DNA of 64,000 nt from G963667425 sp963667425 [NCBI: bacterium] (GTDB lineage: Bacteria; UBP6; UBA1177), in the NCBI GenBank assembly GCA_963667425.1, contig OY763407.1:124001-188000 (forward strand), written 5' to 3'. The notes beneath the pieces are model-generated. The model was not told the DNA's origin, searched no databases, and worked only from the letters and a program-made list of their open reading frames with translations. The position numbers and the translations under genes were made by a program. This document shows positions 3,875 through 59,849 of the stretch, in pieces (position 1 is the first letter of the stretch; each line of letters opens with the position of its first letter).

Positions 3875-4471
3875 ATGGTAGAGAGTTTACAGGAAAAGAT
3901 ATTTAATGAGGCAAAAAAGCTTTTTTATGTTTACGGATTTAAACGGATAACAATGGATGAGATTGCAGTTGCATGCAAGATAAGTAAGAAGACTCTTTAT
4001 CAGATTTATCCTTCAAAGGAGCTTCTTATAAAGGAGTGCGTTGAAAAGATATCCTTTAGTAAAGTTGATGTTATTCATAGAACCATAGATTCAGGTGTTT
4101 CTGTTTCTCATGTTTTTAAATCTATGTTTGATATGTTTAGAAGTCTAAGTCATGATGTCTCTCAGGCTATGCTTAATGATATGCAGCTTATGCCTGAGAT
4201 GTGGAGCATGATAGAAGAGAGAAGGATGACAGTGTTTGAAAGGATGGGCGAGATTGTGGAAAGAGGTCAGCAGGATGGGAGTATAAAAAAAGAGCTCAAT
4301 ATTGACCTTTTTCTAAGGATTTATATGGGAATTTTGCAGAAATTTGTAACTCCTATGATGTTTTCAGAGATGAATGTAAGTCCTTCCGAGTTGATGAGTC
4401 AGCTTGAAATAGTTATATTTGAAGGAATACTGACAGATGAAGCAAGAAAAGAGGTGAATAAAGATGCGTAG
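3875..4471 (+). CDS. TetR-family transcriptional regulator of the adjacent efflux operon
   Basis: 198 residues. The N-terminal TetR helix-turn-helix is clear: an IFNEAKKLFYVYGF helix, ITMDEIAVACKISKKTLY as HTH, then a YPSKELL helix at about residues 45-52. The C-terminal ligand domain is variable, as usual. It is the first gene of a tightly packed operon; its end overlaps the HlyD gene by 8 nt. By analogy with CecR-YbhGFSR it most likely represses the operon and responds to an exported compound. An ACGAGG ribosome-binding site precedes the ATG. Confidence 0.88.
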   Translation: MVESLQEKIFNEAKKLFYVYGFKRITMDEIAVACKISKKTLYQIYPSKELLIKECVEKISFSKVDVIHRTIDSGVSVSHVFKSMFDMFRSLSHDVSQAMLNDMQLMPEMWSMIEERRMTVFERMGEIVERGQQDGSIKKELNIDLFLRIYMGILQKFVTPMMFSEMNVSPSELMSQLEIVIFEGILTDEARKEVNKDA

Positions 4472-9951: not shown

Positions 9952-10551
9952 TTATAGAGCCAATATTTCTGCCAACTTCTCTTTTGTGAGAACTTCTTTA
10001 ATGTCTTTAACTATCATTTCCAGCAGCTTATCGTCTTCAGTTTCGTCATTTAGAGCGGTCGGCATTTCATGAAATGTCATCATTGTACAGTCTTTATATG
10101 GAATATTCTCTGGCTTAAAAGTTGTTCCAATTATTTCATCAAGCTTTGGTTTCATTTTCATGGTTGGCCCTCTATCTCTAAGTATATAAGAAAAGAGTCC
10201 AGGCTTGTTGTTATATTTATTGATCTCAAAACCAAAGCACCACTTATGTTTTTTTGCCTGCTCAAGAGTTTTGCCAAAAAATAATAGCTGATGCCAGATT
10301 TTGTTTCTATCATGATTTCTTTTATAATATTCAACATTGTTTTGCTTAAAATAGTTTATGAGCTCTTTAGAGAGTTGATCAGAAAATTCCCAAAAATAGT
10401 TTGTTGCAGATGCAACAACACAATCAAATTTCTTTTTCCAGCCAGCTTCTGTTCCATATTGAATGTCATCATAGTTGTCAAGTTCCAGTATAGTTTCCAT
10501 TGTGTCAAAATTTTTCATATAAAAAATAAAGCTTTTTGCCATTTTACCCAT
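9952..10551 (-). CDS. Unknown protein, third gene of the PDDEXK_4 operon
   Basis: 199 residues from the ATG at 10551, which follows AGGAGA; a TTG six bases upstream is too close to that site. The gene overlaps the nuclease gene by 8 nt, so coupling is likely. It is a soluble, aromatic- and Lys-rich protein with no motif I recognise (notable stretches: NYFWEFSDQL, HKWCFGFEINKY). PDDEXK_4 proteins often carry an extra C-terminal domain of similar size, so this may be that domain encoded separately; this is inference. Confidence 0.6.
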   Translation of the reverse strand: MGKMAKSFIFYMKNFDTMETILELDNYDDIQYGTEAGWKKKFDCVVASATNYFWEFSDQLSKELINYFKQNNVEYYKRNHDRNKIWHQLLFFGKTLEQAKKHKWCFGFEINKYNNKPGLFSYILRDRGPTMKMKPKLDEIIGTTFKPENIPYKDCTMMTFHEMPTALNDETEDDKLLEMIVKDIKEVLTKEKLAEILAL

Positions 10552-11356
10552 GATCAATGTCTCCTATATATTTAAAGCATCTTATGTTGTAGCTGCTTGA
10601 TTCATAATATCTGATGTTATACAGATCTTTTAACAATGAAGCTGTATAGAGTCTAAGTGCTTCATATCCTTCAGGCTGATTTCCTTTATACTCTTTTAAA
10701 ATAGAGAGCAGACGTACCGCAATTTCTTTCCATGATACTGACTGCCATTTATTTTTATTATCAGTTTTTCCCTGAATACCGTCAAGAGTCAGGAAAATAA
10801 AGTTACAGTTTTTTCTGCCACAATACTCTTTATCATACCGTTCAAGCTGGTTTTTACCTTCTGATGAGTTTATTTTTGCTTCAATTATAACTGTAAAACT
10901 TTTGTTGTTGTCTAATCTTCCTTTAATTTTAATATCAACCCTGTTCTTTTTGTTTTCCTGATCAGATAATTCTGTCTCAACAGAGTAGTCTGTTACCTCG
11001 TTCTTTAATTTAAAAAGAGGTACAAGGCTTTTAAACAGAGAGTCTTTAAAACCATGGCTGTTTTTTTTGTCTAAAAACCATCCAAGTGTTTTTGTGTAGT
11101 GAAGCTCATCATATTCCTTTCCAAAGATTTCAAAAAGAGAAAACGGCGCAAAGATAGGATTTTCAGGGAATTTAGTCTTTTCTTTGATAAGTTTATCTTT
11201 AATATGTTTTTCTGTACGTGTTAAAACCTTTTGAATAGTTTTGAAATCTTCTTCAGATACCGTTGTGTTCCGTTTTACACATGTCTGATATACCATATCA
11301 AGTTCTTTTAAAAACGGTTTTGTTAAGCGCATGATTCCCTCATTGTTGAAGTTCAT
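10544..11356 (-). CDS. PD-(D/E)XK nuclease superfamily protein (PDDEXK_4 type)
   Basis: 270 residues. The family signature is readable: Glu84 in a helix ending ELHYTKTLGWFLD, a downstream HGFKDSLF, Asp141 in NRVDIKIKG, Glu159-x-Lys161 in VIIEAKI, and Gln170-L-x-x-Y. These are the PD-(D/E)XK catalytic residues (E...D...ExK, then Q/Y), so the active site looks intact and a metal-dependent DNA or RNA cleavage activity is expected. Members of this family are common in defence islands and mobile DNA. AAGGA precedes the ATG at 11356. It overlaps the upstream gene by 17 nt and the downstream one by 8 nt, so the three form one operon. Confidence 0.78.
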   Translation of the reverse strand: MNFNNEGIMRLTKPFLKELDMVYQTCVKRNTTVSEEDFKTIQKVLTRTEKHIKDKLIKEKTKFPENPIFAPFSLFEIFGKEYDELHYTKTLGWFLDKKNSHGFKDSLFKSLVPLFKLKNEVTDYSVETELSDQENKKNRVDIKIKGRLDNNKSFTVIIEAKINSSEGKNQLERYDKEYCGRKNCNFIFLTLDGIQGKTDNKNKWQSVSWKEIAVRLLSILKEYKGNQPEGYEALRLYTASLLKDLYNIRYYESSSYNIRCFKYIGDIDHG

Positions 11357-11735
11357 TCTTATCCTTCCTGCTGCTCATTAAAACAATACAGCCGTACTGT
11401 TCTTCATTAGTCGTGCAGTTTCCCCATCTAAATATCCAATCGATCTTTTCAATAAAAATGTCCACGATTGCTACAAGCTCATTCATATCCGGCTTCTTAC
11501 CGTAAAAAAAGAGAAGCAGTCCATCCGGTTTTCTTTCAGGAGCATCTTTAATTGCATTATCAAACGCCCTTTTAAGAGAGTCTGCTTTTCCTGAAGCGGC
11601 ATAGTAGATAGTGCCTTTTTCCTGAAGTTCGTTAAGATCTTCTTCTGAAACCTGAAGAAACATCCTTTTGCCTTGAAAACTTTTAAACAGAGCAATGGTT
11701 TCTTCTATTTGTTTTGTGTCTGCTTTAAATGTCAT
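11340..11735 (-). CDS. Unknown small protein, first gene of the PDDEXK_4 operon
   Basis: 131 residues from the ATG at 11735, chosen because TTGGAGA lies 6-8 nt before it; the frame stays open to 11879 without another good start. It is a soluble alpha/beta protein with no recognised domain. IYYAASGKADSLKRAFDNA and PDGLLLFFYGKKPDMNEL are the most structured-looking parts. A promoter lies at 11778-11806. Its 3' end overlaps the nuclease gene by 17 nt, so the stoichiometry of the two proteins is probably linked. It could be a partner or regulator of the nuclease (inference). Confidence 0.62.
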   Translation of the reverse strand: MTFKADTKQIEETIALFKSFQGKRMFLQVSEEDLNELQEKGTIYYAASGKADSLKRAFDNAIKDAPERKPDGLLLFFYGKKPDMNELVAIVDIFIEKIDWIFRWGNCTTNEEQYGCIVLMSSRKDKNELQQ

Positions 11736-11777
11736 TGCGTTCTCCAATTGCCTGATAATAATGTGCCTTGTTAAGTT

Positions 11778-11806
11778 ACTATAACAAAGTAGGGGTAGTC
11801 TTGCAA
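11778..11806 (-). promoter_or_regulatory. Promoter of the PDDEXK_4 operon
   Basis: On the minus strand TTGCAA (11806-11801), a 17-nt spacer and TATAGT (11783-11778) precede the ATG at 11735 by about 42 nt. Confidence 0.45.
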
Positions 11807-11852
11807 TCTTTTTGTTGACAAACTGGAAGACAGCAAATTCATACAAATCATG

Positions 11853-12066
11853 CACCTTCCAGAGCTGGAAAGCTATCACTTGGGATAAATAAGCCGTTTT
11901 CCGAAACGGGAAACCATATAATTCAGACTAAAACGGTCATTTGTTACGTGTGCAAATCACTATATTTGCTTAAATAAGATACCTTCCACGCCTGGAAACC
12001 CATCATTTTGAGCAAATTATAGACCTTTCACGTGTGGGAACCTGTCACTTTGTGTCAGAATATGTA
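11853..12066. repeat. Array of five degenerate 42-43 bp repeats with palindromic cores
   Basis: This fills most of the 424-nt intergenic stretch. Five units start at about 11855, 11897, 11939, 11982 and 12024 (steps of 42, 42, 43 and 42). Each has an inverted core of the type TTCCA-N4-TGGAA (best at 11857-11870 and 11984-11997), followed by a second block like TATCACTTT, then GCAAAT and ATAAG. The units are too divergent for a CRISPR array and lack unique spacers. A step of 42 bp equals four DNA turns, so all cores face the same side. A related three-unit array precedes the paralogous gene at 14339. Confidence 0.7.
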
Positions 12067-12096
12067 TGTATATTAAAAAGAATTACATATCTAAAA

Positions 12097-12124
12097 TTGA
12101 CAAACAATATTTTTATTCTATATA
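12097..12124 (+). promoter_or_regulatory. Promoter of the first SBBP lipoprotein gene
   Basis: TTGACA (12097-12102), a 16-nt spacer and TATATA (12119-12124; the run also allows an 18-nt spacer). It lies 31 nt downstream of the last array unit and 36 nt upstream of the ATG at 12160. Confidence 0.6.
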
Positions 12125-12159
12125 TAGATAAGTAAAAACTTATATTTCGGGAGGGAAGA

Positions 12160-14085
12160 ATGAGGTGTTTATTAATTTTATTTGTTCTGATACTGACGGC
12201 AGTAGGCTGTGATGACAGTTCGGTGTCTAAAACAGATAATGATAGCTATCTGCAGGACAAAGATACTGATGTAATAGCGGATACGGAAGCAGATGAAGAC
12301 ATTGCTGTTGATGAAGATTATAACGAAGATTCTGATATTACTGCTGACGAGGATTCTGATGAAGATACCGGCTGTATAGAAAATGACATAAAAACCGAAG
12401 ATTGCGGTTATAACCAGAATGGAAAGCAGTCTTATACATGTACCAATGGTAAGTGGGAAGTTAGCGGAGAGTGCAATGATCCTGATGAATTTCTGAACGG
12501 GAATACTCAGTCAGAGACAGAAAGCTGTGGCTTAAATAATAATGGTACAAAACTTTTTAACTGTAGTGATGGAACGTGGGTCTTAGATAGCTGCAATGAT
12601 CCAGATGAATGTGCAAATAGTGCAGATAAAACTGAAACCTGCGGATTTAATGGTAATGGTTCACAGTCATATATATGTACCAATGGTAAGTGGGAAGTTA
12701 GCGGAGAATGCAATGATCCTGATGAATGTCTGAACGGAAGCACACAGCCTGGAACAGAAATTTGTGGATTAAATAATAATGGAACAGAGCTTTATACATG
12801 CAGTAATGGGGCGTGGGTATTAGGGTGTAACGATCCTGATGAATGTATAGACAAATCAACCAAAACCGAAGCTGGAATATTTTCAACATGTGAAAGCGGT
12901 CACTGGAAGGTTATAAGAAAAACTATTCTTTTGGGAACTACTGATGATGATTCTGCTGAATCCATAGCAGTTGATAGTGCTGGTAATGTTTATATAGCAG
13001 GTTTTACCTATGGAGCACTTGATGGAGTGAATGCAGGATCTGCCGATGCTTTTGTAATAAAGCTTAATTCAGATGGTGAAATTCAATGGGTAAAACAGAT
13101 TGGAAGTTCAGGTACAGATTATTGCACTTCTTTAGCTATAGATAAAAGCGGTAATATTTATATAGCAGGTTATACAACTGGCGATTTTGATGGGACAAAT
13201 GCAGGAAAAAACGATATTTTTGTAATAAAAATTGATTCTGAAGGGAATATACTTTGGAAAAAACAGATTGGAAGTTCCGGTGAAGAGTATTGTGAGTCTC
13301 TAGCTATAGATGAAAATAGTAATATTTATATAGCAGGTTATACATATGGCGTGCTTGATGGAACAAATGCAGGAGCTGCCGATGCTTTTGTAATAAAACT
13401 TAATTCAAGCGGAGAAACTCAGTGGACAAAACAGTTTGGCGGTTCAGTGTATGAAGGTATTTTATCTATAGCAGTTGACATTAGTGGTAATATTTATGCT
13501 CTTGGTGATACAGCCGGCAGTTTTTTTGGAACAAATCTTGGGCATTTTGATGTTTTTATAATGAAGCTTGATTCAGATGGTAATATCACTTTGAAAAAAC
13601 AGTTTGGAACTTCAGGAAGTGAATTTTCATCTTCTCTGGTTTTGGATGCATCCGGTAATATATATGTTACTGGTTATACCTCCGGCAATTTTGGCGGAAC
13701 AAATAGTGGAGATTATGACGTGTTTGTGAAAAAGTTTGATTCAACAGGTGTGTCTCAGTGGACAAAACAATTTGGAACTTCAGATTATGATTCTGGTTAT
13801 TCAATAAATCTGGATAGTTCAGATAATATATATATCACAGGTTTTACAATGGGCGACTTTTTTGGAACAAATGCCGGAAAAGATGATATCTTTTTCCTTA
13901 AGCTTTATAGCTCAGGAAACATTTCAGAAAGTTTACAGTTAGGAACGGCTGGAAATGATAGAGGTCGAGGTATTGCAGTAAGTAACGGCAATATATATGT
14001 AACAGGTTATACAGAGGGATCTATTGATAATTCAATATATTTAGGGTACAAGGATATATTCCTTTCAATAATTCCGACTGAATAA
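12160..14085 (+). CDS. SBBP beta-propeller lipoprotein with Cys-rich repeats
   Basis: 641 residues. The signal peptide ends in AVGC (Cys17), followed by an Asp/Glu/Thr linker to about residue 75. Then come about five Cys-rich repeats of some 40 residues (C-G-x-N-x-N-G-x-x-x-Y-x-C-x-N-G-x-W and CNDPDEC, about 80-245), resembling EGF-like or disulfide modules. From about residue 265 there are seven or eight SBBP repeats (GNIYIAGYT, then DAFVIKL and GxxxWTKQ/G) expected to close a beta-propeller. It is probably exposed on the outer membrane and acts in binding or adhesion (inference). GGGAGGG precedes the ATG. It is paralogous to the gene at 14339. Confidence 0.88.
   Translation: MRCLLILFVLILTAVGCDDSSVSKTDNDSYLQDKDTDVIADTEADEDIAVDEDYNEDSDITADEDSDEDTGCIENDIKTEDCGYNQNGKQSYTCTNGKWEVSGECNDPDEFLNGNTQSETESCGLNNNGTKLFNCSDGTWVLDSCNDPDECANSADKTETCGFNGNGSQSYICTNGKWEVSGECNDPDECLNGSTQPGTEICGLNNNGTELYTCSNGAWVLGCNDPDECIDKSTKTEAGIFSTCESGHWKVIRKTILLGTTDDDSAESIAVDSAGNVYIAGFTYGALDGVNAGSADAFVIKLNSDGEIQWVKQIGSSGTDYCTSLAIDKSGNIYIAGYTTGDFDGTNAGKNDIFVIKIDSEGNILWKKQIGSSGEEYCESLAIDENSNIYIAGYTYGVLDGTNAGAADAFVIKLNSSGETQWTKQFGGSVYEGILSIAVDISGNIYALGDTAGSFFGTNLGHFDVFIMKLDSDGNITLKKQFGTSGSEFSSSLVLDASGNIYVTGYTSGNFGGTNSGDYDVFVKKFDSTGVSQWTKQFGTSDYDSGYSINLDSSDNIYITGFTMGDFFGTNAGKDDIFFLKLYSSGNISESLQLGTAGNDRGRGIAVSNGNIYVTGYTEGSIDNSIYLGYKDIFLSIIPTE
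12438..12736 (+). repeat. Near-identical 62-bp direct repeats 237 bp apart inside the SBBP gene
   Basis: The stretch starting at 12438 (encoding CTNGKWEVSGECNDPDE) recurs at 12675 with only a few mismatches. The offset of 237 bp is exactly 79 codons, so gain or loss of one unit keeps the frame. Confidence 0.75.
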
Positions 14086-14106
14086 ATTAGCTGAACCATC
14101 TTTTTA

Positions 14107-14235
14107 TATTTCAACTAAAAGAAATCACTTGCACAAAACAAAACAATGTCATTTCAACATTATGGAATTTATCACTTTACGCAAATGATTAGCCTGCCAC
14201 GCGGTGGAAACCTTTGTTTTGTTGTCAATATTTCA
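14107..14235. repeat. Second array: three degenerate 43-bp repeats related to those at 11853-12066
   Basis: Units start at about 14107, 14150 and 14193 (steps of 43). The middle and last units read CATTTCAACATTATGGAA with TATCACTTTACGCAAAT, and CCTGCCACGCGGTGGAAACC, matching the consensus of the first array. The array sits between the two SBBP genes, upstream of the promoter of the second. Confidence 0.65.
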
Positions 14236-14276
14236 GTTTTACACATTTTTCCTAATAAACAGATTTGTCTAAAAGG

Positions 14277-14306
14277 TTGACATATGGTATTGCAATTATG
14301 TATATT
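14277..14306 (+). promoter_or_regulatory. Promoter of the second SBBP lipoprotein gene
   Basis: TTGACA (14277-14282), an 18-nt spacer and TATATT (14301-14306), 33 nt before the GTG start at 14339. It lies about one helical turn further from the array than in the paralogous gene. Confidence 0.6.
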
Positions 14307-14338
14307 CAACTGCTGTTAATAACAAATTGGAGGGTTTG

Positions 14339-15871
14339 GTGAAGTATTTAATGATTTTATTTTTGTTTATCTTTTTGTTTATTGGCTGTGATGACAGTTC
14401 TACAAGTAAAAGTGATGGTGATGCTTATTTGCCTGATGCTGATGAAATAACAGATACAGAAACAGATGAAGAAAATGATGCTGATGAAGTTACTGATACT
14501 GAAAATGATACTGAAAATGATGTCGACGAAGTTGTTGACATGGAAACTGATATCGAAAATGATGCTGATGAGGTAGTTGATATAGAGGCTGATGAAGATC
14601 AGTTTGTTCCTGAGTGCAGTGAAGGGGAGCAGAAGGTAGGTACTGGTATCGTTTCCAAATGTGTTGACAGCAGATGGAATGTTGTAAGAAAAACTGTTCA
14701 GTTTGGAACTGAAGAAACTGATGTTGCAAATTCTTCGGCTATTGATAATGCCGGTAATATTTATATCGCAGGAACTACTGGTGGTGATCTTTACTCTGCA
14801 AAAGGTGGTTTGGCAGATATTTTTCTTACGAAATATGATGCTGCCGGCAATAAGCTTTGGGGTAAGCAGATTGGAAACGGAGCAAGTGAACATGCTTTTT
14901 TTGTAGCTGTTGATTCTACCGGTAATATTTATGTTGCAGCTGATGCGGGTGATGCCGAATCTTCTCTTTACGGGCCAATAGTTGGAAGATTTGATGTTGT
15001 TTTAATTAAATTTGATTCTGATGGTAATGAATTGTGGGCTAAACAGGCGGGCTCTGCTAATATAGATTATCCTGTTGCAATAACTGTCGATTCTAATGAT
15101 AATGTTTATGTGGCAGGAGATACGTATGCTGATCTTTATGGTGAAAACCTTGGGAGTATTGATTATTTTATCGTGAAGTATGATTCAGCCGGTAATGAGC
15201 TTTGGGCTAAACATTTTGGAACTGCTTATGCTGATTATGTAAAATCGATTGCCTCTGACAGCCAGGGTAATATTTATGTTACAGGAAATACTACTGCTAA
15301 CGATGGATATAAAAACCGTGCTGTAGATTATGATGCTTTTATTGTAAAATATGATTCAAATGGAAACAAGGTATGGGGAGAAATGATAGGGCTTGCGGAT
15401 AGTAATGAATCTGCTAACGTTGTAAATGTTGATGATAGTGATAATGTTTATATTTCAGGTTCAACTACCGGCAGTATTTTTGCCGTAAATGCCGGAGAAT
15501 CTGATATTTTGTTTATAAAATATGATGCTGGTGGCAATAACGTTTTTGCAAAACAGTTTGGTACATGGAAATCGGAAACTGTAACTTCGTTTGACTTTGC
15601 TTCGAATAACACTTTCTATTTTACTGGTACTGCAAATATTATTGCATCACAGAGTTCGATTCATGGTTTCTTCCTTGCTGAATTTGATGTTACAGATGAT
15701 TCCTTTACTCCACTTGAATTTTCTGTTGATTGTGATGATGTTTCATCTTTATCGGTTTCTGCCGGAAGTAATGGAAATATCTATCTTACTGGTGCTATAG
15801 ATGGAACAATTGACAGTTCTGTTTCTTATGGAGATGTTGACGCATTTCTTTCAGTAATTTATCCTGAGTAA
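14339..15871 (+). CDS. SBBP beta-propeller lipoprotein, paralogue lacking the Cys-rich repeats
   Basis: 510 residues from GTG 14339, chosen because GGAGGG (14329-14334) lies 4 nt upstream; a TTG at 14327 overlaps that site. The signal peptide ends in LFIGC, immediately followed by DDSSTSKSDGD, nearly the same as the 12160 protein (DDSSVSKTDND). A long Asp/Glu linker with repeated ENDADEV units leads to one Cys pair and the SRWNVVRKTVQFG junction shared with the paralogue. About seven SBBP repeats follow (NIYVAGDT/GNELWAKQ type). Outer-surface beta-propeller; ligand unknown. The shared leader, junction and promoter architecture show that the two genes are tandem duplicates. Confidence 0.86.
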   Translation: MKYLMILFLFIFLFIGCDDSSTSKSDGDAYLPDADEITDTETDEENDADEVTDTENDTENDVDEVVDMETDIENDADEVVDIEADEDQFVPECSEGEQKVGTGIVSKCVDSRWNVVRKTVQFGTEETDVANSSAIDNAGNIYIAGTTGGDLYSAKGGLADIFLTKYDAAGNKLWGKQIGNGASEHAFFVAVDSTGNIYVAADAGDAESSLYGPIVGRFDVVLIKFDSDGNELWAKQAGSANIDYPVAITVDSNDNVYVAGDTYADLYGENLGSIDYFIVKYDSAGNELWAKHFGTAYADYVKSIASDSQGNIYVTGNTTANDGYKNRAVDYDAFIVKYDSNGNKVWGEMIGLADSNESANVVNVDDSDNVYISGSTTGSIFAVNAGESDILFIKYDAGGNNVFAKQFGTWKSETVTSFDFASNNTFYFTGTANIIASQSSIHGFFLAEFDVTDDSFTPLEFSVDCDDVSSLSVSAGSNGNIYLTGAIDGTIDSSVSYGDVDAFLSVIYPE

Positions 15872-18520: not shown

Positions 18521-18608
18521 GGAGGAGTGGCCGAGTGGTTGAAGGCGGCGGTCTTGAAAACCGTTGATGTGCAAGCATCCGTGGGTTCGAATCCTACCTC
18601 CTCCGCCA
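18521..18608 (+). tRNA. tRNA-Ser(UGA)
   Basis: Class II tRNA with a 7-bp acceptor (GGAGGAG/CTCCTCC), anticodon loop CTTGAAA, a long variable arm, T-loop GGTTCGAATCC, discriminator G and encoded CCA. Confidence 0.95.
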
Positions 18609-18637
18609 TTTTTTTTTGTTTTTTCTGAATCGAGTAC

Positions 18638-18727
18638 GGAGAGGTGACCGAGTGGCCGAAGGTGCTCGCCTGCTAAGCGAGTATGGGGGAAACTCCATCG
18701 AGGGTTCGAATCCCTCCTTCTCCGCCA
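18638..18727 (+). tRNA. tRNA-Ser(GCU)
   Basis: Class II tRNA: acceptor GGAGAGG/CTTCTCC, anticodon stem-loop CTCGC-CTGCTAA-GCGAG, a long variable arm, discriminator G and encoded CCA. Confidence 0.95.
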
Positions 18728-18732
18728 CTATT

Positions 18733-18809
18733 GCACCCATAGCTCAATTGGATAGAGCGTCTGACTACGAATCAGGAGGTTGGAGGTTCGAGCCCTCCTG
18801 GGTGTACCA
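18733..18809 (+). tRNA. tRNA-Arg(ACG), substrate of TadA
   Basis: 77 nt with acceptor GCACCCA/TGGGTGT, anticodon loop CTACGAA (anticodon ACG), T-loop GGTTCGAGCC and encoded CCA. A34 of this tRNA is the base that TadA converts to inosine. The tadA start codon begins 3 nt after the CCA. Confidence 0.95.
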
Positions 18810-18812
18810 GCC

Positions 18813-19268
18813 ATGACAGATGTTTTTTATATGAAAAAAGCTCTTGAATTGGCGGATCTTGCTTTTTTAAGAGGAGAGGTTCCTGTAGGAGCTCTCGTGG
18901 TCTTTGATAATAGAGTTGTCGGAAGAGGATATAACAAGAGAGAAACGTTACAGTCTCCACTTTTACATGCCGAGATTGAAGCTATAAAAGAAGCTTCTGA
19001 AGAACTTGGAACATGGCGGTTGGAAAACTGTACTTTATATGTGACTCTTGAACCTTGTATCATGTGTTCCGGTGCTATTCTGCAAAGTAGAATACCCAAT
19101 GTCGTGTTTGGAGCTTTTGATCCTAAAGCTGGTGCCGTTAATTCACTTTTCACACTTCTTAATGATTCCAGATTAAATCACAGATGTAGTGTGACCAGTG
19201 GAATTCTTGAAGAAGAGTGCAGCGAGATCCTTACCAGATTTTTCAGGAACATAAGAAAAAAAAGGTAA
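18813..19268 (+). CDS. tadA: tRNA-specific adenosine-34 deaminase
   Basis: 151 residues from the ATG at 18813; the in-frame TTG at 18780 lies inside the tRNA gene. The zinc-dependent deaminase motifs are complete: HAEIEAI (His and catalytic Glu) and LEPCIMCSGA (PCxxC). The length is usual for TadA. It makes inosine at the wobble position of tRNA-Arg(ACG), which lets that one tRNA read CGU, CGC and CGA. The ATG is 3 nt after the CCA end of tRNA-Arg(ACG), so the only SD-like bases (GGGTG) belong to the tRNA acceptor stem. The stop is 1 nt before the next tRNA-Ser. The gene is therefore embedded in a tRNA operon containing its own substrate. Confidence 0.96.
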   Translation: MTDVFYMKKALELADLAFLRGEVPVGALVVFDNRVVGRGYNKRETLQSPLLHAEIEAIKEASEELGTWRLENCTLYVTLEPCIMCSGAILQSRIPNVVFGAFDPKAGAVNSLFTLLNDSRLNHRCSVTSGILEEECSEILTRFFRNIRKKR

Positions 19269-19269
19269 C

Positions 19270-19361
19270 GGAGAGATGGCCGAGTGGTCGAAGGCGCTTG
19301 ACTCGAAATCAAGTGTACTCTGAAGAGGGTACCAAGGGTTCGAATCCCTTTCTCTCCTCCA
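19270..19361 (+). tRNA. tRNA-Ser(CGA) with an apparent U73 discriminator
   Basis: Class II tRNA: acceptor GGAGAGA/TCTCTCC, anticodon stem-loop CTTGA-CTCGAAA-TCAAG, a long variable arm, and a CCA encoded at 19359-19361. The base before CCA is T; the other three tRNA-Ser in the cluster have G there. Confidence 0.94.
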
Positions 19362-19391
19362 TTACTTCCGATAGTTCTCGTTTTTTTGTGC

Positions 19392-19485
19392 GGAGAGGTG
19401 TCCGAGCTGGCTGAAGGAGCACGATTGGAAATCGTGTGTAGTGGCAAAACCGCTACCGAGGGTTCGAATCCCTCCTTCTCCGCCA
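19392..19485 (+). tRNA. tRNA-Ser(GGA)
   Basis: Class II tRNA: acceptor GGAGAGG/CTTCTCC, anticodon stem-loop CACGA-TTGGAAA-TCGTG, a long variable arm (GTAGTGG...CCGCTAC), discriminator G and encoded CCA. Confidence 0.95.
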
Positions 19486-19498
19486 TTTTTTTTATTAT

Positions 19499-19591
19499 GG
19501 TCGGGAGCTGTACAATAAACCCCGCAAATCCCGTCAGGTCTGGAAGGAAGCAGCGGTAGTGGAAAGTTTATGTGTTGCAGTTTACCCGGCC
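19499..19591 (+). ncRNA. ffs: Signal recognition particle 4.5S RNA (small bacterial SRP RNA)
   Basis: About 93 nt that closes with GGTCGGG/CCCGGCC. The apical domain carries the universally conserved GTCAGGTCTGGAAGGAAGCAG, with the GGAA tetraloop and the Ffh-binding internal loop. It is the compact form without an Alu domain. It lies 13 nt after tRNA-Ser(GGA) and ends in TCTTTTTTT (19592-19600), which would serve as a terminator for the whole RNA operon. Its receptor gene ftsY is at the left edge of the window. Confidence 0.95.
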
Positions 19592-19662
19592 TCTTTTTTT
19601 GCCTATTTTTTATCATTACATATAATTTTCAAGTTTATTATCTCTATGATGAGGAAAAGAAT

Positions 19663-20571: not shown

Positions 20572-21462
20572 TTGCAAAGCAATATAATCCTCTACACAAC
20601 AGAGGACGGCAAAACAGCGGTTGATGTTAAACTTGATAATGAAACTGTCTGGTTGACACAAAAACAACTCATAGAACTTTTTCAGATAACTAAACAGAAT
20701 GTCAGTTTGCATATAAATAATATATTTAAAGAAGGAGAACTTGATCAACAATCAGTTGTCAAGGATTACTTGACTACTGGATCTGATGGCAAAAATTATA
20801 ATGTTAAACACTACAACCTTGATGTTATAATTTCCGTTGGATATCGTGTAAAATCCAAGCGTGGTACTCAGTTTCGTATATGGGCTAACAGTGTTTTGAA
20901 AGAATATCTGATAAAAGGGTATGCCGTTAATCAGAAACGACTTGAGGAGCTGCATCAAACCATAAAACTTCTTGAAAACACTATTGCTTATAAACAGATA
21001 GAGTTTGATCAGGCAAAAGAACTTGTAAAAGTTATCAGTGACTTTTCCTATGGTTTGTCACTTCTTGATGGCTATGACCATCAATCAGTTGAAATATCAG
21101 ATACTACAAAAGGAGAATGCTATCAGCTTAAGTATAGGGAAGTTCGGAAGTTAGTTGACGAAATGACAAAAGAATTTAACACTGGACTTTTCGGACACGA
21201 AAAAGATGAAGGCTTCAAAGGGGCTCTCGGAAATATTTATCAGACATTTGGAGGAGAAGAACTTTATCCAAGCATTGAGGAAAAGGCTGCAAATCTACTC
21301 TACTTTATTGTGAAAGACCATGCTTTTTCTGATGGCAACAAAAGAATTGCCGCTGCAACATTTCTCTATTTTCTTGATAAGAATAGGCTTCTTTACAAGA
21401 CAGATGGTTCTAAACGTATTCCAGATAATACCCTTGTAGCTGTGACTCTCATGATTGCTTAA
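20572..21462 (+). CDS. RhuM-Fic/Doc fusion protein, C-terminus cut by an in-frame stop
   Basis: 296 residues, TTG start preceded by AGGGGAG. The N-terminal half is the RhuM 'virulence protein' domain (VWLTQKQLIELFQITKQNVSLHINNI), a KilA-N/Bro-like DNA-binding module. The C-terminal half is Fic/Doc with an HAFSDGNKR active-site motif. Fic enzymes transfer AMP or phosphate to target proteins, and RhuM-Fic genes are found on mobile elements. The family normally ends '...LVALTLLIAESKP...NLIN'. Here TAA (21460-21462) replaces the Glu codon, yet the same frame continues with a well-matched tail (SQPQENN...VVNLINKRN) to TGA at 21526-21528. The active-site motif lies before the stop, so activity may or may not survive. 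Confidence 0.82.
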   Translation: MQSNIILYTTEDGKTAVDVKLDNETVWLTQKQLIELFQITKQNVSLHINNIFKEGELDQQSVVKDYLTTGSDGKNYNVKHYNLDVIISVGYRVKSKRGTQFRIWANSVLKEYLIKGYAVNQKRLEELHQTIKLLENTIAYKQIEFDQAKELVKVISDFSYGLSLLDGYDHQSVEISDTTKGECYQLKYREVRKLVDEMTKEFNTGLFGHEKDEGFKGALGNIYQTFGGEELYPSIEEKAANLLYFIVKDHAFSDGNKRIAAATFLYFLDKNRLLYKTDGSKRIPDNTLVAVTLMIA

Positions 21463-56064: not shown

Positions 56065-56271
56065 TCAAATAATCAGCATAGATTCGTGCCATACGACAAC
56101 GAAAAACATAACAATAGAAGCATAAACCCCAATTACAGAGAGAAAAAAACCGATTGCAATTAAAATTTGAATAGGAAAAAAAGAAAAATATAGAAATAAA
56201 AGTTTCAAAACACCATATCCGAAATAAAAATAAATTGATTTCTCAAAAATAAAGTCATAAATTAAATACAT
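56065..56271 (-). CDS. Possible small membrane protein
   Basis: 68 residues with two strongly hydrophobic segments (GVLKLLFLYFSFFPIQILIAIGFF; VYASIVMFFVVVWHE). It has no Shine-Dalgarno and the composition could arise by chance in AT-rich sequence. It is the only plausible gene in the 56055-56853 stretch. Unrecognised. Confidence 0.3.
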   Translation of the reverse strand: MYLIYDFIFEKSIYFYFGYGVLKLLFLYFSFFPIQILIAIGFFLSVIGVYASIVMFFVVVWHESMLII

Positions 56272-56377
56272 AAAGGCTAAATAAAATGAAAGCTGATGCT
56301 CATTGATAAAAGAAAAATAAATAAACGGAAAAATCTATCTGTAAAATAGATTAAGAAGAAAGCAAAAGCAGTTTTGA

Positions 56378-56790
56378 AGTAAGTGACAGCTCTCTGGAAA
56401 TAAGTGATAAAACTCTGGAAACAGGTAATGAGTGATAAAAAGCTCATGAAAAAAAACTTTAAGCATCTATTTTAAAGAAGCGAGCAAAGTAAAAAAACCT
56501 ATGAAAGCCATTATTGCTTAAAAGTTAAACACAATTAATAAAAATTCAGCCGCAAACATAAAAAAGTCAGTCGTGATAGGTAAAAAGTTAATCGCAATTG
56601 TTCTTGCAAAGGTATTTATTGGCATTTGGAAACAGGTGATGAGCCTGAAAAAGCCTGTGAAAAAAAACTTGAAGCACACCATTAACAGAAAGGAAGCCGA
56701 TAAAATAAGAAAAGAAAAGCATCAGATGAAAAAAGTTGAACGTCAGAACATAAAAGTTGGTTATGAAACAGAAAAAGTTAAACGTTAACA
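56378..56790. repeat. Degenerate repeat zone in the 56055-56853 intergenic stretch
   Basis: CTCTGGAAA occurs at 56392 and 56413, and AAGTGA at 56381 and 56402, both exactly 21 bp apart. A diverged 60-bp direct repeat (TGGAAACAGGT(A/G)ATGAG...GAAAAAAAACTT(T/G)AAGCA) lies at about 56416 and 56627. Further on, AAAAAGTT(A/G)A(A/T)CG-type units recur up to 56790. No intact gene is seen; a 71-codon frame at 56573 is probably not real. It looks like an eroded repeat-containing gene or repeat island. Confidence 0.45.
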
Positions 56791-56853
56791 CTCCGAGGAA
56801 AGCCGTGAAATAAAAATAAAAGCCATATTATTAACCGAAAAAGAGGTAAACCG

Positions 56854-57240
56854 ATGACAACAGAAGAATTAAAACAGGAAACAGAAGCAAAAACCATCCA
56901 GAATTCAACAAACTACAAATCAATCAAAGAAAAGCTGGTAAGCTGGAAACTTATGCTGGACAATGCCGTAAGTGACAACACAATCCTGCAGGCATTAACT
57001 AAAAGAAACCTTACAAAAGAAAAGCTGGAAGAAAAAAGAGAATACTGTCAGAAAGTGATAAATCTGAACCTTAAACAGGAAACGGAATACGGTGAAAAAT
57101 TAAGTGCATACGACGATTATCAGAAACTCAGAGAAAAACTCAGAGAGGATTTTTACGAATATAAAACACTTGGCAAAATAGTATTTGAAGAAGATGAAAC
57201 AAGAAATGATCCCCTGTGGTATTTCCGGACAGTAAGTTAA
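56854..57240 (+). CDS. Unknown helical protein whose 3' end is formed by an IS terminal repeat
   Basis: 128 codons after AGAGGTAAACCG. The protein is strongly helical and Lys/Glu-rich, unrecognised. The last three codons and the stop (TVS-stop) are encoded by the terminal inverted repeat of the IS at 57227, so the original C-terminus was replaced when the element inserted. No continuation of this protein is found on the other side of the IS, where a different gene fragment lies. Probably non-functional or altered. Confidence 0.55.
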   Translation: MTTEELKQETEAKTIQNSTNYKSIKEKLVSWKLMLDNAVSDNTILQALTKRNLTKEKLEEKREYCQKVINLNLKQETEYGEKLSAYDDYQKLREKLREDFYEYKTLGKIVFEEDETRNDPLWYFRTVS

Positions 57241-58016
57241 GCACATTCACCAACCCTTTTATAATAGTAACATTTTTCGAACTGCTCCGGTGAGGAATAG
57301 TTCAAATACGAATGCAATCTTTTTCTGTTATAAAACATCTCTATGAATTCAAAAACAGCTCTTTTTGCAGAATTCCTGCTTATAAACCTGAAACAGTGAA
57401 GCTGTTCAACTTTAAGTGTGTGAAAAAATGATTCCGCAACGGCATTGTCATAACAGTTGCCTTTTCCGCTCATGCTCTGAACTGCCTTGACTGATTTCAG
57501 AAGATTCCTGAATTCAATGCTGCAGTACTGTGAACCTCTGTCCGAATGAAATATCAGACCTGGCAGCGGATTCCGTTTCCTTAACGCCATTCTGAATGCT
57601 TCGATGACCAGTGCTTTTTTTATCCTGTCGCTCATCGCCCATCCGACAACTCTTCTTGAAAAAAGATCAATAACCACAGCTACATAAAGCCACCCTTCAT
57701 TTGTCCGAACATAGGTGATATCTCCCACCCACACTTTATCCGGGGCTTCTGTCCTGAAATTCTGATCAAGAAGATTGTCCGCCACAGGATTATCATGTTC
57801 AGAATCTGTCGTTACTTTGAATTTTCTTCGTGCTTTAGCAACAAGACTTTGTTCTTTCATAAGCCGTCTTGTGCGGCAGCTTCCAATATTAAATCCGTTA
57901 TTTTTCAATTCTCTGACAATCCTTGCAACTCCGTAAGTCTCTTTTGAATCTTTAAATTTAGACCTGATTACTGCCCTCTTTTTTACGGTCACTTTCTTTC
58001 CGCTTAAGCCATTCAT
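57237..58016 (-). CDS. IS3-family transposase OrfB (integrase core), frameshifted
   Basis: 259 residues of the OrfB part: an HTH_21 region (YGVARIVRELKNNGF), then the rve integrase core with D (VWVGDITYVRT), D (FHSDRGSQY) and E (NAVAESFFHTLKVE), so the DDE triad is intact. The proper N-terminus lies in another frame: after a -1 shift at the A7G slippery run (58137-58130) the frame reads HLLRKVDCFRI...SGYYEWLKRKESDRKK. It then stops at 57958 unless a second shift occurs at an A6 run (57984-57979). Removing one A there would restore the full OrfAB. This copy is therefore probably disabled. Confidence 0.82.
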   Translation of the reverse strand: MNGLSGKKVTVKKRAVIRSKFKDSKETYGVARIVRELKNNGFNIGSCRTRRLMKEQSLVAKARRKFKVTTDSEHDNPVADNLLDQNFRTEAPDKVWVGDITYVRTNEGWLYVAVVIDLFSRRVVGWAMSDRIKKALVIEAFRMALRKRNPLPGLIFHSDRGSQYCSIEFRNLLKSVKAVQSMSGKGNCYDNAVAESFFHTLKVEQLHCFRFISRNSAKRAVFEFIEMFYNRKRLHSYLNYSSPEQFEKCYYYKRVGECA

Positions 58017-58103
58017 AGTAACCTGAACTGCTTACACCAAGATAATCGGCCATCTCCAATAGACTATATTTACTATGCAGTTCCATCATTATTCTAAAAC
58101 AAT

Positions 58104-58403
58104 CTACTTTTCTAAGGAGATGGCCATTGCTTTTTTTAATATGTCTCTCTCCATCTCAAGATGACGAATCTTTTTCTTCAGTTCAGAAATCTCTTTCTCG
58201 AAATCACTTCCGTAAACCTTTATTCCGTTACCCTGAAATACACTCTCTCCTTTTGATTCATACTCTATCTTCCAGTCCCTCAATGTGTAGTAATTCAGAC
58301 CAAGTGACTCTGATACTTCACGGATTGAACGTCCTTCCTCAATGATCATCTTTACTACCGAAATCTTAAATTCCCTGTCATAACAATTCCTGTTTCTAAC
58401 CAT
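58104..58403 (-). CDS. IS3-family transposase OrfA
   Basis: 99 residues with the HTH_Tnp_1 domain (YDREFKISVVKMIIEEGRSIREVSESLGLNYYTLRDW) and a C-terminal leucine zipper-like coiled coil (DFEKEISELKKKIRHLEMERDILKKA). GGAGG precedes the ATG. OrfA binds the IS ends; fused to OrfB by -1 frameshifting at the A7G run near its 3' end it normally gives the transposase. Confidence 0.88.
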   Translation of the reverse strand: MVRNRNCYDREFKISVVKMIIEEGRSIREVSESLGLNYYTLRDWKIEYESKGESVFQGNGIKVYGSDFEKEISELKKKIRHLEMERDILKKAMAISLEK

Positions 58404-58462
58404 TTTAAGCCTCCTTTACAGCTTCTTCTACATTAGTGTAATTTGGCTTAACTTACTGTCCA

Positions 58463-58938
58463 CTTTTTCCTATAGGGTTCATGGTAAGAAACATCCTATA
58501 GTTATAATTTATGATTCACAGAATATAAACGATATTACAAAGCTTGTGAAAATAAGAATATATATAATCCAGAAATTGGTTAATTTAACTATGGAAAATT
58601 TTAAAAAAAATTTAAATGAAATAGAAGATGGGTCATACAATAAAGAATTGATTGAAGACAATGAAGAAAAACCTGATTTGGTAGAAAAATTAAAAGAAAT
58701 TTCTAATGAAAAACTTTTTAAGTCTAAAGATATTGTTTCTTTAGAGCTTACAGGACATTCTGTTCTTACAGGATTATTAGATTATTACATAAAATTTGTA
58801 TTTACTAGTAATAAGAGTTATAAAAAAAGAGCAGAAAGATTAATTTCTGGAAGTGTTATTAGAGCTGCATGTAATGAGAGCACCGTTAAAACGTTTGAAG
58901 ATTTAAGTGATTATTATAAACTTGCTATAGCCCCCTAA
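58463..58938 (+). pseudogene. dgt: Remnant of a dGTP triphosphohydrolase gene trapped between two IS elements
   Basis: One open frame runs from the right end of IS 1 to the left end of IS 2 (about 155 codons, no own start). KKHPIVIIYDS fits the 'RHPLxFLVEAADD' segment of dGTPases. IRIYIIQKLVNLTMENF, EDGSYNKELI, LVEKLKEISNEKLFKSKDIVSLEL and TGHSVLTGLLDYYIKFV follow the C-terminal helices of that family. The HD-motif N-terminus is absent, material between the first two blocks seems lost, and the end after YYKLAIA is cut by IS 2. It cannot be active. Confidence 0.6.
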
Positions 58939-58952
58939 AAACTATACAGAAA

Positions 58953-59849
58953 TCAAGCAGTAACTTTCCCAATATTTTTTCCAGTTTTTTCATAATATCT
59001 GCTCATAACATCTGACGGTGTTCTGTAACCGCATCCCTTATGAGGTCTCTCCTCGTTATAAAACTCTGTCAAGGCTCTTATCACTTTGTCCAGCTCACTG
59101 AAACTTTCAAAACCCTCTCTTTTTACTATAAATCTCTGCAGTATGCTGTGAAAACATTCCACGTATCCATTTTCCTGCGGCGTTCTGACGTGACAGAACT
59201 CATGTTTCATATTTATTGTCTTTTCTATAAAGTCCGCCATATCTTTTGATATAAACTGGCTTCCGTTATCGCTCCTAAGCATTATATCTCTGGGATTTCC
59301 GTAAAGTATAATCACTTTTCTCAGCATATCTATCACATCTTCTTTCCTTATACTTCCTGATAATCTGTATGACAGCAGTTTCCAGCTGTAACAGTCTATC
59401 AGGTTAAGCATATAATAGTGTCTCTGCTCGCCTTTTACATATATGTACTTTATGTCTATCTCTATCTTTTCAAACGGACGGCTGACGTTTACTTTCCAGC
59501 TTCCAACTCTTTGACGATTCTCTGCTTTTTCTCTGATGCGTTTCTGAAGATAACCCGCTTCTTTCATAAGACGGTATACTTTCTTGCGGTTGATTATTAT
59601 TCCATATCTGTTTCTCAGTATGTGGCAGATCTTTATATAGCCATAATCTGCAAACTGATGATTTATTATGCTTTCTATTTTTGAAACCACTTCTTCGTTA
59701 AGAATCCTGTTCCCTTCACAGTTTATTGAAAACAGTGACGGTTTTCTGCCTGCTTTACCTTCTTTATTCCTGTAATTATATGTGGATAGCGGGATATCAA
59801 GCTTACTGCACATTGCTTTTCTGCCTCTTTTAAAACTGTATTTATTCAC
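58953..59849 (-). CDS. IS3-family transposase OrfB (integrase core)
   Basis: 298 residues: HTH_21 (DYGYIKICHILRNRYGI), then the rve core with D (KIEIDIKYIYV), D (MLRSDNGSQF) and E (ENGYVECFHS), a full DDE triad. The GTG start overlaps the orfA stop by one base (TAGTG), which suggests termination-reinitiation rather than the -1 frameshift used by IS 1. The gene is uninterrupted, so this element may still be mobile. Confidence 0.9.
   Translation of the reverse strand: MNKYSFKRGRKAMCSKLDIPLSTYNYRNKEGKAGRKPSLFSINCEGNRILNEEVVSKIESIINHQFADYGYIKICHILRNRYGIIINRKKVYRLMKEAGYLQKRIREKAENRQRVGSWKVNVSRPFEKIEIDIKYIYVKGEQRHYYMLNLIDCYSWKLLSYRLSGSIRKEDVIDMLRKVIILYGNPRDIMLRSDNGSQFISKDMADFIEKTINMKHEFCHVRTPQENGYVECFHSILQRFIVKREGFESFSELDKVIRALTEFYNEERPHKGCGYRTPSDVMSRYYEKTGKNIGKVTA

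What the first reader, a model, noticed from the sequence alone, without database searches (positions are those of the whole stretch)
11853..14235. Helically phased palindromic repeat arrays in front of both SBBP lipoprotein genes
Five units upstream of the first gene (steps 42, 42, 43, 42) and three upstream of the second (steps 43, 43) share a core like TTCCACG-N-TGGAA followed by ATCACTTT..GCAAAT. A 42-bp step is four DNA turns, so a protein bound to each core would sit on one face. Both arrays end 30-45 nt before a good promoter, and the distance differs by about one turn between the paralogues. Nothing similar was seen before the other lipoprotein genes. This suggests a multi-site operator for an unknown regulator, or a site-specific recombination/phase-variation element.
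Basis: partly seen in the sequence, partly recalled or inferred. Interest (0 to 1): 0.75.

Follow-up and report, generated by a model that had tools for sequence, protein, structure and literature searches.

The report
Phased palindrome array before lipoprotein gene
In front of one lipoprotein gene of an uncultured bacterium lies a real row of five worn 42-base repeats with a mirror-symmetric centre, best read as a docking strip for an unknown regulator and copied in part to the neighbouring sister gene; it was not found in the related genomes searched, so it looks like a local regulatory feature.

Summary
The 424-nt gap before the first SBBP gene has a strong 42-nt period (score 48; best of 300 shuffles 21.4), with five units at steps 42, 43, 42, 42. 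The gap before the second gene has no significant period of its own (121 of 300 shuffles do as well). It is a colinear, diverged copy of the first, from unit 3 through promoter and signal peptide, so the two arrays are one event. Two of its three claimed units are supported; the third is not. The units keep mirror symmetry better than neutral decay predicts (P 0.0003-0.005), and the core arms vary less than the rest (8 of 50 against 56 of 160). I read it as a multi-site operator for a dimeric regulator, duplicated with its gene (0.55); a worn tandem repeat is the main rival. Searches of 28 same-phylum genomes and 56 automatically placed SBBP upstream regions gave no counterpart, with limited sensitivity. 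The window's own genome is not held, so the decisive scan could not be run.

The parts
11736..12159 (.). Intergenic region between a minus-strand gene (start probably ATG at 11735) and SBBP lipoprotein gene 1; holds array 1
   Evidence: Lag-42 score 48.0 against at most 21.4 in 300 shuffles
11852..11893 (+). Unit U1, core TTCCAGAGCTGGAA at 11857-11870
   Evidence: Leave-one-out: beaten by 0 positions
11894..11936 (+). Unit U2, anchor 11899 (GTTTTCCGAAACGGGAAAC); the weakest of array 1
   Evidence: Leave-one-out: beaten by 18 of 127,483, 141 or 567 of 127,482
11937..11978 (+). Unit U3, degenerate core, anchor 11942 (ATTTGTTACGTGTGCAAAT)
   Evidence: Leave-one-out: beaten by 107 of 127,483, 10 or 18 of 127,482
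11979..12020 (+). Unit U4, core TTCCACGCCTGGAA at 11984-11997, then ATCATTTTGAGCAAAT
   Evidence: Leave-one-out: beaten by 0
12021..12062 (+). Unit U5, core TTTCACGTGTGGGAA at 12026-12040
   Evidence: Leave-one-out: beaten by 0
12097..12124 (+). Probable promoter of SBBP gene 1 (TTGACA, 16 nt, TATATA)
   Evidence: Sequence and colinear alignment with gene 2; not listed by the consensus scan
12160..14085 (+). SBBP beta-propeller lipoprotein gene 1, 641 aa
   Evidence: Pfam SBBP E 4.9e-52
14104..14146 (+). Claimed unit U6: not supported
   Evidence: Beaten by 18,335 of 127,482 with the array-1 profile; opposite a linker in the paralogue alignment; but 52% identity to U7 at lag 43
14147..14189 (+). 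Unit U7, anchor 14153, diverged copy of U4 (ATCACTTTACGCAAATGAT conserved)
   Evidence: Array-1 profile: beaten by 11 of 127,482; U4U5 against U7U8 score 41, 0 of 1000 shuffles
14190..14232 (+). Unit U8, anchor 14196, diverged copy of U5 (CCACGCGGTGGAAACC)
   Evidence: Array-1 profile: beaten by 13 of 127,482; same alignment
14277..14306 (+). Probable promoter of SBBP gene 2 (TTGACA, 18 nt, TATATT; 11 of 12)
   Evidence: Consensus scan; alignment
14339..15871 (+). SBBP lipoprotein gene 2, about 510 aa; start GTG 14339 seems likelier than TTG 14327
   Evidence: Pfam SBBP E 1.4e-27 for the ORF from 14327; 36% identity to gene 1 over 422 positions

Best explanation
Array 1 is a lineage-specific cis-regulatory strip: five binding sites for a dimeric DNA-binding protein, spaced 42-43 bp (four helical turns), so that they lie on one face of the DNA between about 57 and 240 bp upstream of the -35 box of SBBP lipoprotein gene 1. 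The protein, not identified, would bind cooperatively and activate or silence the promoter. Gene and upstream strip were duplicated in tandem; the copy before gene 2 kept two recognisable sites and the promoter. Shown: the period, symmetry beyond neutral decay, and the colinear copy. Inferred: binding, cooperativity, the regulator and the direction of control.
For: Significant 42-nt period directly upstream of a likely promoter. Symmetry of the five units is highest at the core, first of 53 centres tested. Palindrome pairs of U1-U5 sum to 25 against 15.3 expected under neutral decay from their consensus (P 0.0003; best of three centres 26 against 18.4, P 0.001); with U4 or U1 as ancestor P is 0.002-0.005. 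Core arms carry 8 of 50 differences from consensus against 56 of 160 elsewhere (Fisher p 0.013). A profile of array 1 alone finds U7 and U8. The upstream DNA is still alignable between paralogues whose proteins are 36% identical. The two large indels between the copies are 11 and 12 nt, each near one turn. 11800-12066 has stops in all six frames.
Against: The core was chosen after it had been seen, so these P values are optimistic; the units are few and related by descent. By rotation the arms rank second, not first, of 42. No counterpart in 28 same-phylum genomes or in the SBBP upstream regions tested; sensitivity was limited, since the first look scored only 150 candidates in 27 of 28 genomes for R1 and in 14 of 28 for R2, and the best full-length ribosomal protein S1 match is 77% identical (80% in two partial matches). 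No regulator gene among the scanned neighbours; the one regulator found, a TetR type at 3875-4471, stands beside exporter genes. The second copy has lost significant periodicity.
Confidence: 0.55

Rival explanations
1. A worn intergenic tandem repeat: a 42-bp segment amplified once by slippage or unequal crossing-over and now decaying, without regulatory role; the 42-bp step is simply the length of the founding unit.
For: Tandem structure with units 36-67% identical; not found in relatives; the second copy has lost significant periodicity.
Against: Symmetry and arm conservation exceed neutral decay; the upstream stretch stays alignable between strongly diverged paralogues.
Confidence: 0.33
2. 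A site-specific recombination or phase-variation element that switches the lipoprotein genes.
For: Surface lipoproteins are frequent targets of such switches (recalled); repeats lie beside the promoter; three of the nine listed inverted pairs span a promoter.
Against: No recombinase among the 20 genes scanned; inverted pairs are fewer than in four control stretches; units too unlike for ready slippage.
Confidence: 0.04
3. A transcribed element: an RNA with repeated hairpins, or a decayed CRISPR-like array.
For: Some cores can form small hairpins (2 of 8 at z below -2); RNA fold z -1.84, 7 of 200 shuffles fold as well.
Against: Lies upstream of the likely promoter; no Rfam match there at gathering threshold; 6 of 8 unit hairpins no better than z -0.9; linkers as well as cores are similar, unlike spacers.
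Confidence: 0.05

Closest known systems
Multi-site operators and upstream activating regions with helically phased sites (lambda operators, MalT/CRP sites, Fis sites at rrn P1; all recalled, none fetched)
   Same: Several symmetric sites at whole-turn spacing upstream of a sigma-70-like promoter
   Different: Larger unit (42 bp, core plus looser linker), five copies, regulator unknown, seen at one locus only
Intergenic variable-number tandem repeats that modulate promoters (concept recalled; titles and abstract starts seen in the listing, no paper opened)
   Same: Head-to-tail units between genes, before a promoter
   Different: Units 36-67% identical, too diverged for ready copy-number switching, with conserved palindromes
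SBBP beta-propeller proteins (Pfam PF06739)
   Same: Both downstream genes match; matches to gene 1 in 8 of 8 relatives searched first
   Different: No such array in the 56 upstream regions tested in relatives, some of which are probably misplaced

Membership tests
Multi-site operator / upstream activating array | Several similar sites at regular spacing upstream of a promoter | tested here: met
   Five units at steps of 42-43, 0 of 300 shuffles; the promoter itself is a consensus match only
Multi-site operator / upstream activating array | Site sequence or symmetry under constraint | tested here: met
   Symmetry P 0.0003-0.005, arms p 0.013; post hoc
Multi-site operator / upstream activating array | Same site before other genes of a regulon, or conserved in relatives | tested here: not met
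   None elsewhere in the window or, at limited sensitivity, in 28 phylum genomes; own genome not held. I therefore say it works like an operator and do not file it as a member of a named system
Multi-site operator / upstream activating array | A protein binds the sites and changes transcription | not testable with these tools
   Needs bench work
Variable-number tandem repeat (contingency locus) | Near-identical units able to slip | tested here: not met
   Pairwise identity 36-67%; Tandem Repeats Finder lists no array there at minimum score 30
Invertible promoter / site-specific recombination | Inverted repeats around a switchable segment, with a recombinase | tested here: inconclusive
   Three of nine listed pairs span a promoter, with no excess over four control stretches; no recombinase among 20 genes scanned, others not scanned
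CRISPR array | Near-identical repeats separated by unrelated spacers | tested here: not met
   Linkers are similar too and repeats are diverged

The most novel reading that the evidence does not exclude
A dedicated regulator of an uncultured bacterial phylum assembles as a cooperative chain on one face of a five-site, 42-bp-phased operator to control SBBP lipoproteins, and helical phase was preserved by one-turn indels when the operator was duplicated with its gene.
Probability: 0.12. Interest if true: 0.5.

Novelty: new member of a known kind. Interest (0 to 1): 0.33.

Why it matters
If right, it is a first handle on how a poorly known, uncultured phylum controls SBBP lipoproteins, and a case where an operator array and its eroded paralogous copy can be compared within one locus. 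It also shows that 'the same array before both genes' was one event and not two.

Tried and rejected
Own-genome scan: not possible. First genome-contig scan, with the 740-aa lipoprotein: no relatives. Second, with the MglA-like GTPase: 23 loci, of which L001-L008 (62-65% identity) led to a phylum of 28 genomes.

Pattern search: hits at 11 places in 9 of 28 genomes; 7 of the 11 were printed in context and looked isolated, and R1 finds no unit in any of the 11 loci. Profile R1 (one unit): 19 of 28 genomes have something at E up to 10, best 0.03 per genome, chance level for 28 genomes. Profile R2 (two units): 16 of 28 genomes at E up to 10; the best, E 0.0016 in G013, lies inside a 430-aa ORF. 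Of 43 loci behind these searches, only the place in G024 shows a second R1 hit exactly one unit away (9.5 and 5.2 bits); it lies inside a 373-aa ORF, and its lag-42 period is reached by 37 of 100 shuffles. Both rejected as chance in coding DNA.

Viral contigs: three exact hits to a 22-nt pattern in contigs of 51-53% GC, no array around them; a second pattern none; no SBBP1 relative. Plasmids and phages: 3 and 8 records with short matches, E 0.1 or weaker. Plasmid SBBP proteins, below 60% identity, were not pursued.

SBBP upstream regions: 60 fetched, 4 dropped because the frame ran off the contig, 56 tested. Start codons were placed automatically; at least L077, L079, L089, L115, L118 and L130 look misplaced, so the useful number is nearer 50. 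Best lag 42 occurs in three (L079, L081, L116) and is reached by 2, 24 and 1 of 40 shuffles. Fourteen of 56 beat all 40 shuffles: in 13 the lag is a multiple of three in a largely open frame, and L131 has lag 25 in AT-rich DNA. None shows cores at 42-nt steps. R1 on 63 loci (8, 55 of the 60) gave no match.

Paper searches: nothing on such an array among the listed titles and abstract starts; no paper was opened, and only 15 of 56 and 12 of 119 papers were listed. A 21-bp half-period of two alternating palindromes was considered: symmetry near +27 is weak and lag 21 is not among the best lags. In first checks I used anchors one base off for U7 and U8; one search mends that.

Full report
What is there. 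Two SBBP beta-propeller lipoprotein genes stand in tandem (12160-14085 and about 14339-15871, plus strand; Pfam SBBP E 4.9e-52 and 1.4e-27). The 424-nt intergenic region before the first (11736-12159) carries five head-to-tail units of 42-43 nt, each with a core like TTCCACG-N-TGGAA followed by a looser block like ATCACTTT..GCAAAT. With one fixed anchor the steps are 42, 43, 42, 42.

Is it chance? Not the first array. Best-lag self-similarity is at 42 nt with score 48.0; none of 300 dinucleotide shuffles exceeds 21.4. Outside my list of ORFs only one stretch of the window, at 56 kb, scores higher. For the second region (14086-14326) the best lag is 18, lag 43 scores 12.6, and 121 of 300 shuffles do as well as the best. 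Leave-one-out profiles support U1, U4 and U5 strongly and U3 and U2 less. A profile of array 1 alone ranks U7 (beaten by 11 of 127,482 positions) and U8 (by 13) high, and rejects U6 (beaten by 18,335).

The second array is a copy. Local alignment of the two upstream regions scores 58 (0 of 1000 shuffles), and with the promoter part left out 42 (6 of 1000). U4-U5 against U7-U8 scores 41 (0 of 1000) and the promoter and leader part 36 (5 of 1000), whereas U1-U2 against U7-U8 (50 of 1000) and U1-U3 against U6 (156 of 1000) are weak. The global alignment runs colinearly from about U3 through the signal peptide, with an 11-nt insertion between array and promoter in gene 2 and a 12-nt deletion in the U3 region. 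Identities on it: U4 24 of 42, U5 20 of 42, promoter 20 of 30, signal-peptide part 43 of 62. The proteins are 36% identical over 422 positions. So the pair most likely arose by tandem duplication including upstream DNA, and the two arrays are one observation.

Evidence for function. Summed palindrome pairs are highest at the core, first of 53 centres. If the five units had decayed neutrally from their consensus, 15.3 pairs would be expected; 25 are seen (P 0.0003). With U4 or U1 as ancestor P is 0.002-0.005. Differences from consensus fall on the arms in 8 of 50 cells and elsewhere in 56 of 160 (Fisher p 0.013); by rotation the arms rank second of 42. These tests were designed after the core was known. 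The region 11800-12066 has stops in all six frames.

Relatives. The window's genome is not held. The nearest relatives found are 28 genomes of one phylum, reached through MglA-like loci. Ribosomal protein S1 is 73-77% identical in 20 genomes with near-full matches, 55-57% in three, up to 80% in partial matches, and G014 has only a weak match. Matches to SBBP gene 1 (several per gene) number 24-38 in G001 and G003-G006, 11 in G007, 8 in G008 and 3 in G002; at E up to 1e-15, 6 of 20 further genomes match. No convincing unit or pair of units was found in the 28 genomes by pattern or by two profiles; the two best candidates lie inside ORFs. The first look scored only 150 candidates in 27 of 28 genomes for R1 and in 14 of 28 for R2, so this is not exhaustive. 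None of the 56 SBBP upstream regions tested, of which at least six look misplaced, shows such an array. The array is therefore not widely conserved in a form that these searches recognise.

Mechanism. I favour a multi-site operator for a dimeric protein bound on one face of the DNA (0.55). Binding, cooperativity and direction of control are inferences. Indels of 11 and 12 nt between the copies fit a need to keep phase, but two events prove little. A worn tandem repeat without function is the main rival (0.33). A recombination or phase-variation element (0.04) has no positive support: no excess of inverted repeats over four control stretches and no recombinase among 20 genes scanned. A transcribed element (0.05) has little.

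Place among known things. Phased multi-site operators are a known kind (recalled). Recurrence or conservation of the site elsewhere was tested and not met, so I say it works like such an operator and claim no membership in a named system.

Noticed in passing
11340-11879: The minus-strand ORF listed here overlaps U1 only through an upstream GTG; the real start is probably ATG at 11735. The 131-aa protein has no Pfam match at E up to 1.
   Followed up: partly
14327-14341: SBBP gene 2 probably starts at GTG 14339 (after GGAGGG) and not at TTG 14327.
   Followed up: no
11800-12066: CAAAT/ATTTG occurs 6 times in 267 nt against about 0.8 expected from the window rate; a second motif may be involved.
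   Followed up: partly
10544-11356: PD-(D/E)XK nuclease (Pfam PDDEXK_4) with matches to PADLOC candidate PDC-S26.
   Followed up: partly
20572-21462: RhuM/Fic protein matching PADLOC candidate PDC-S23 nearly full length, E 2.9e-127.
   Followed up: partly
56098-56917: Strong 21/42-nt period without a long ORF (longest listed wholly inside it 71 aa); perhaps a broken coiled-coil gene.
   Followed up: partly
57237-59849: Two rve-type (integrase core) transposase genes.
   Followed up: no
18521-19594: Five tRNA genes and a small SRP RNA gene around a cytidine-deaminase-like (TadA-like) gene.
   Followed up: no
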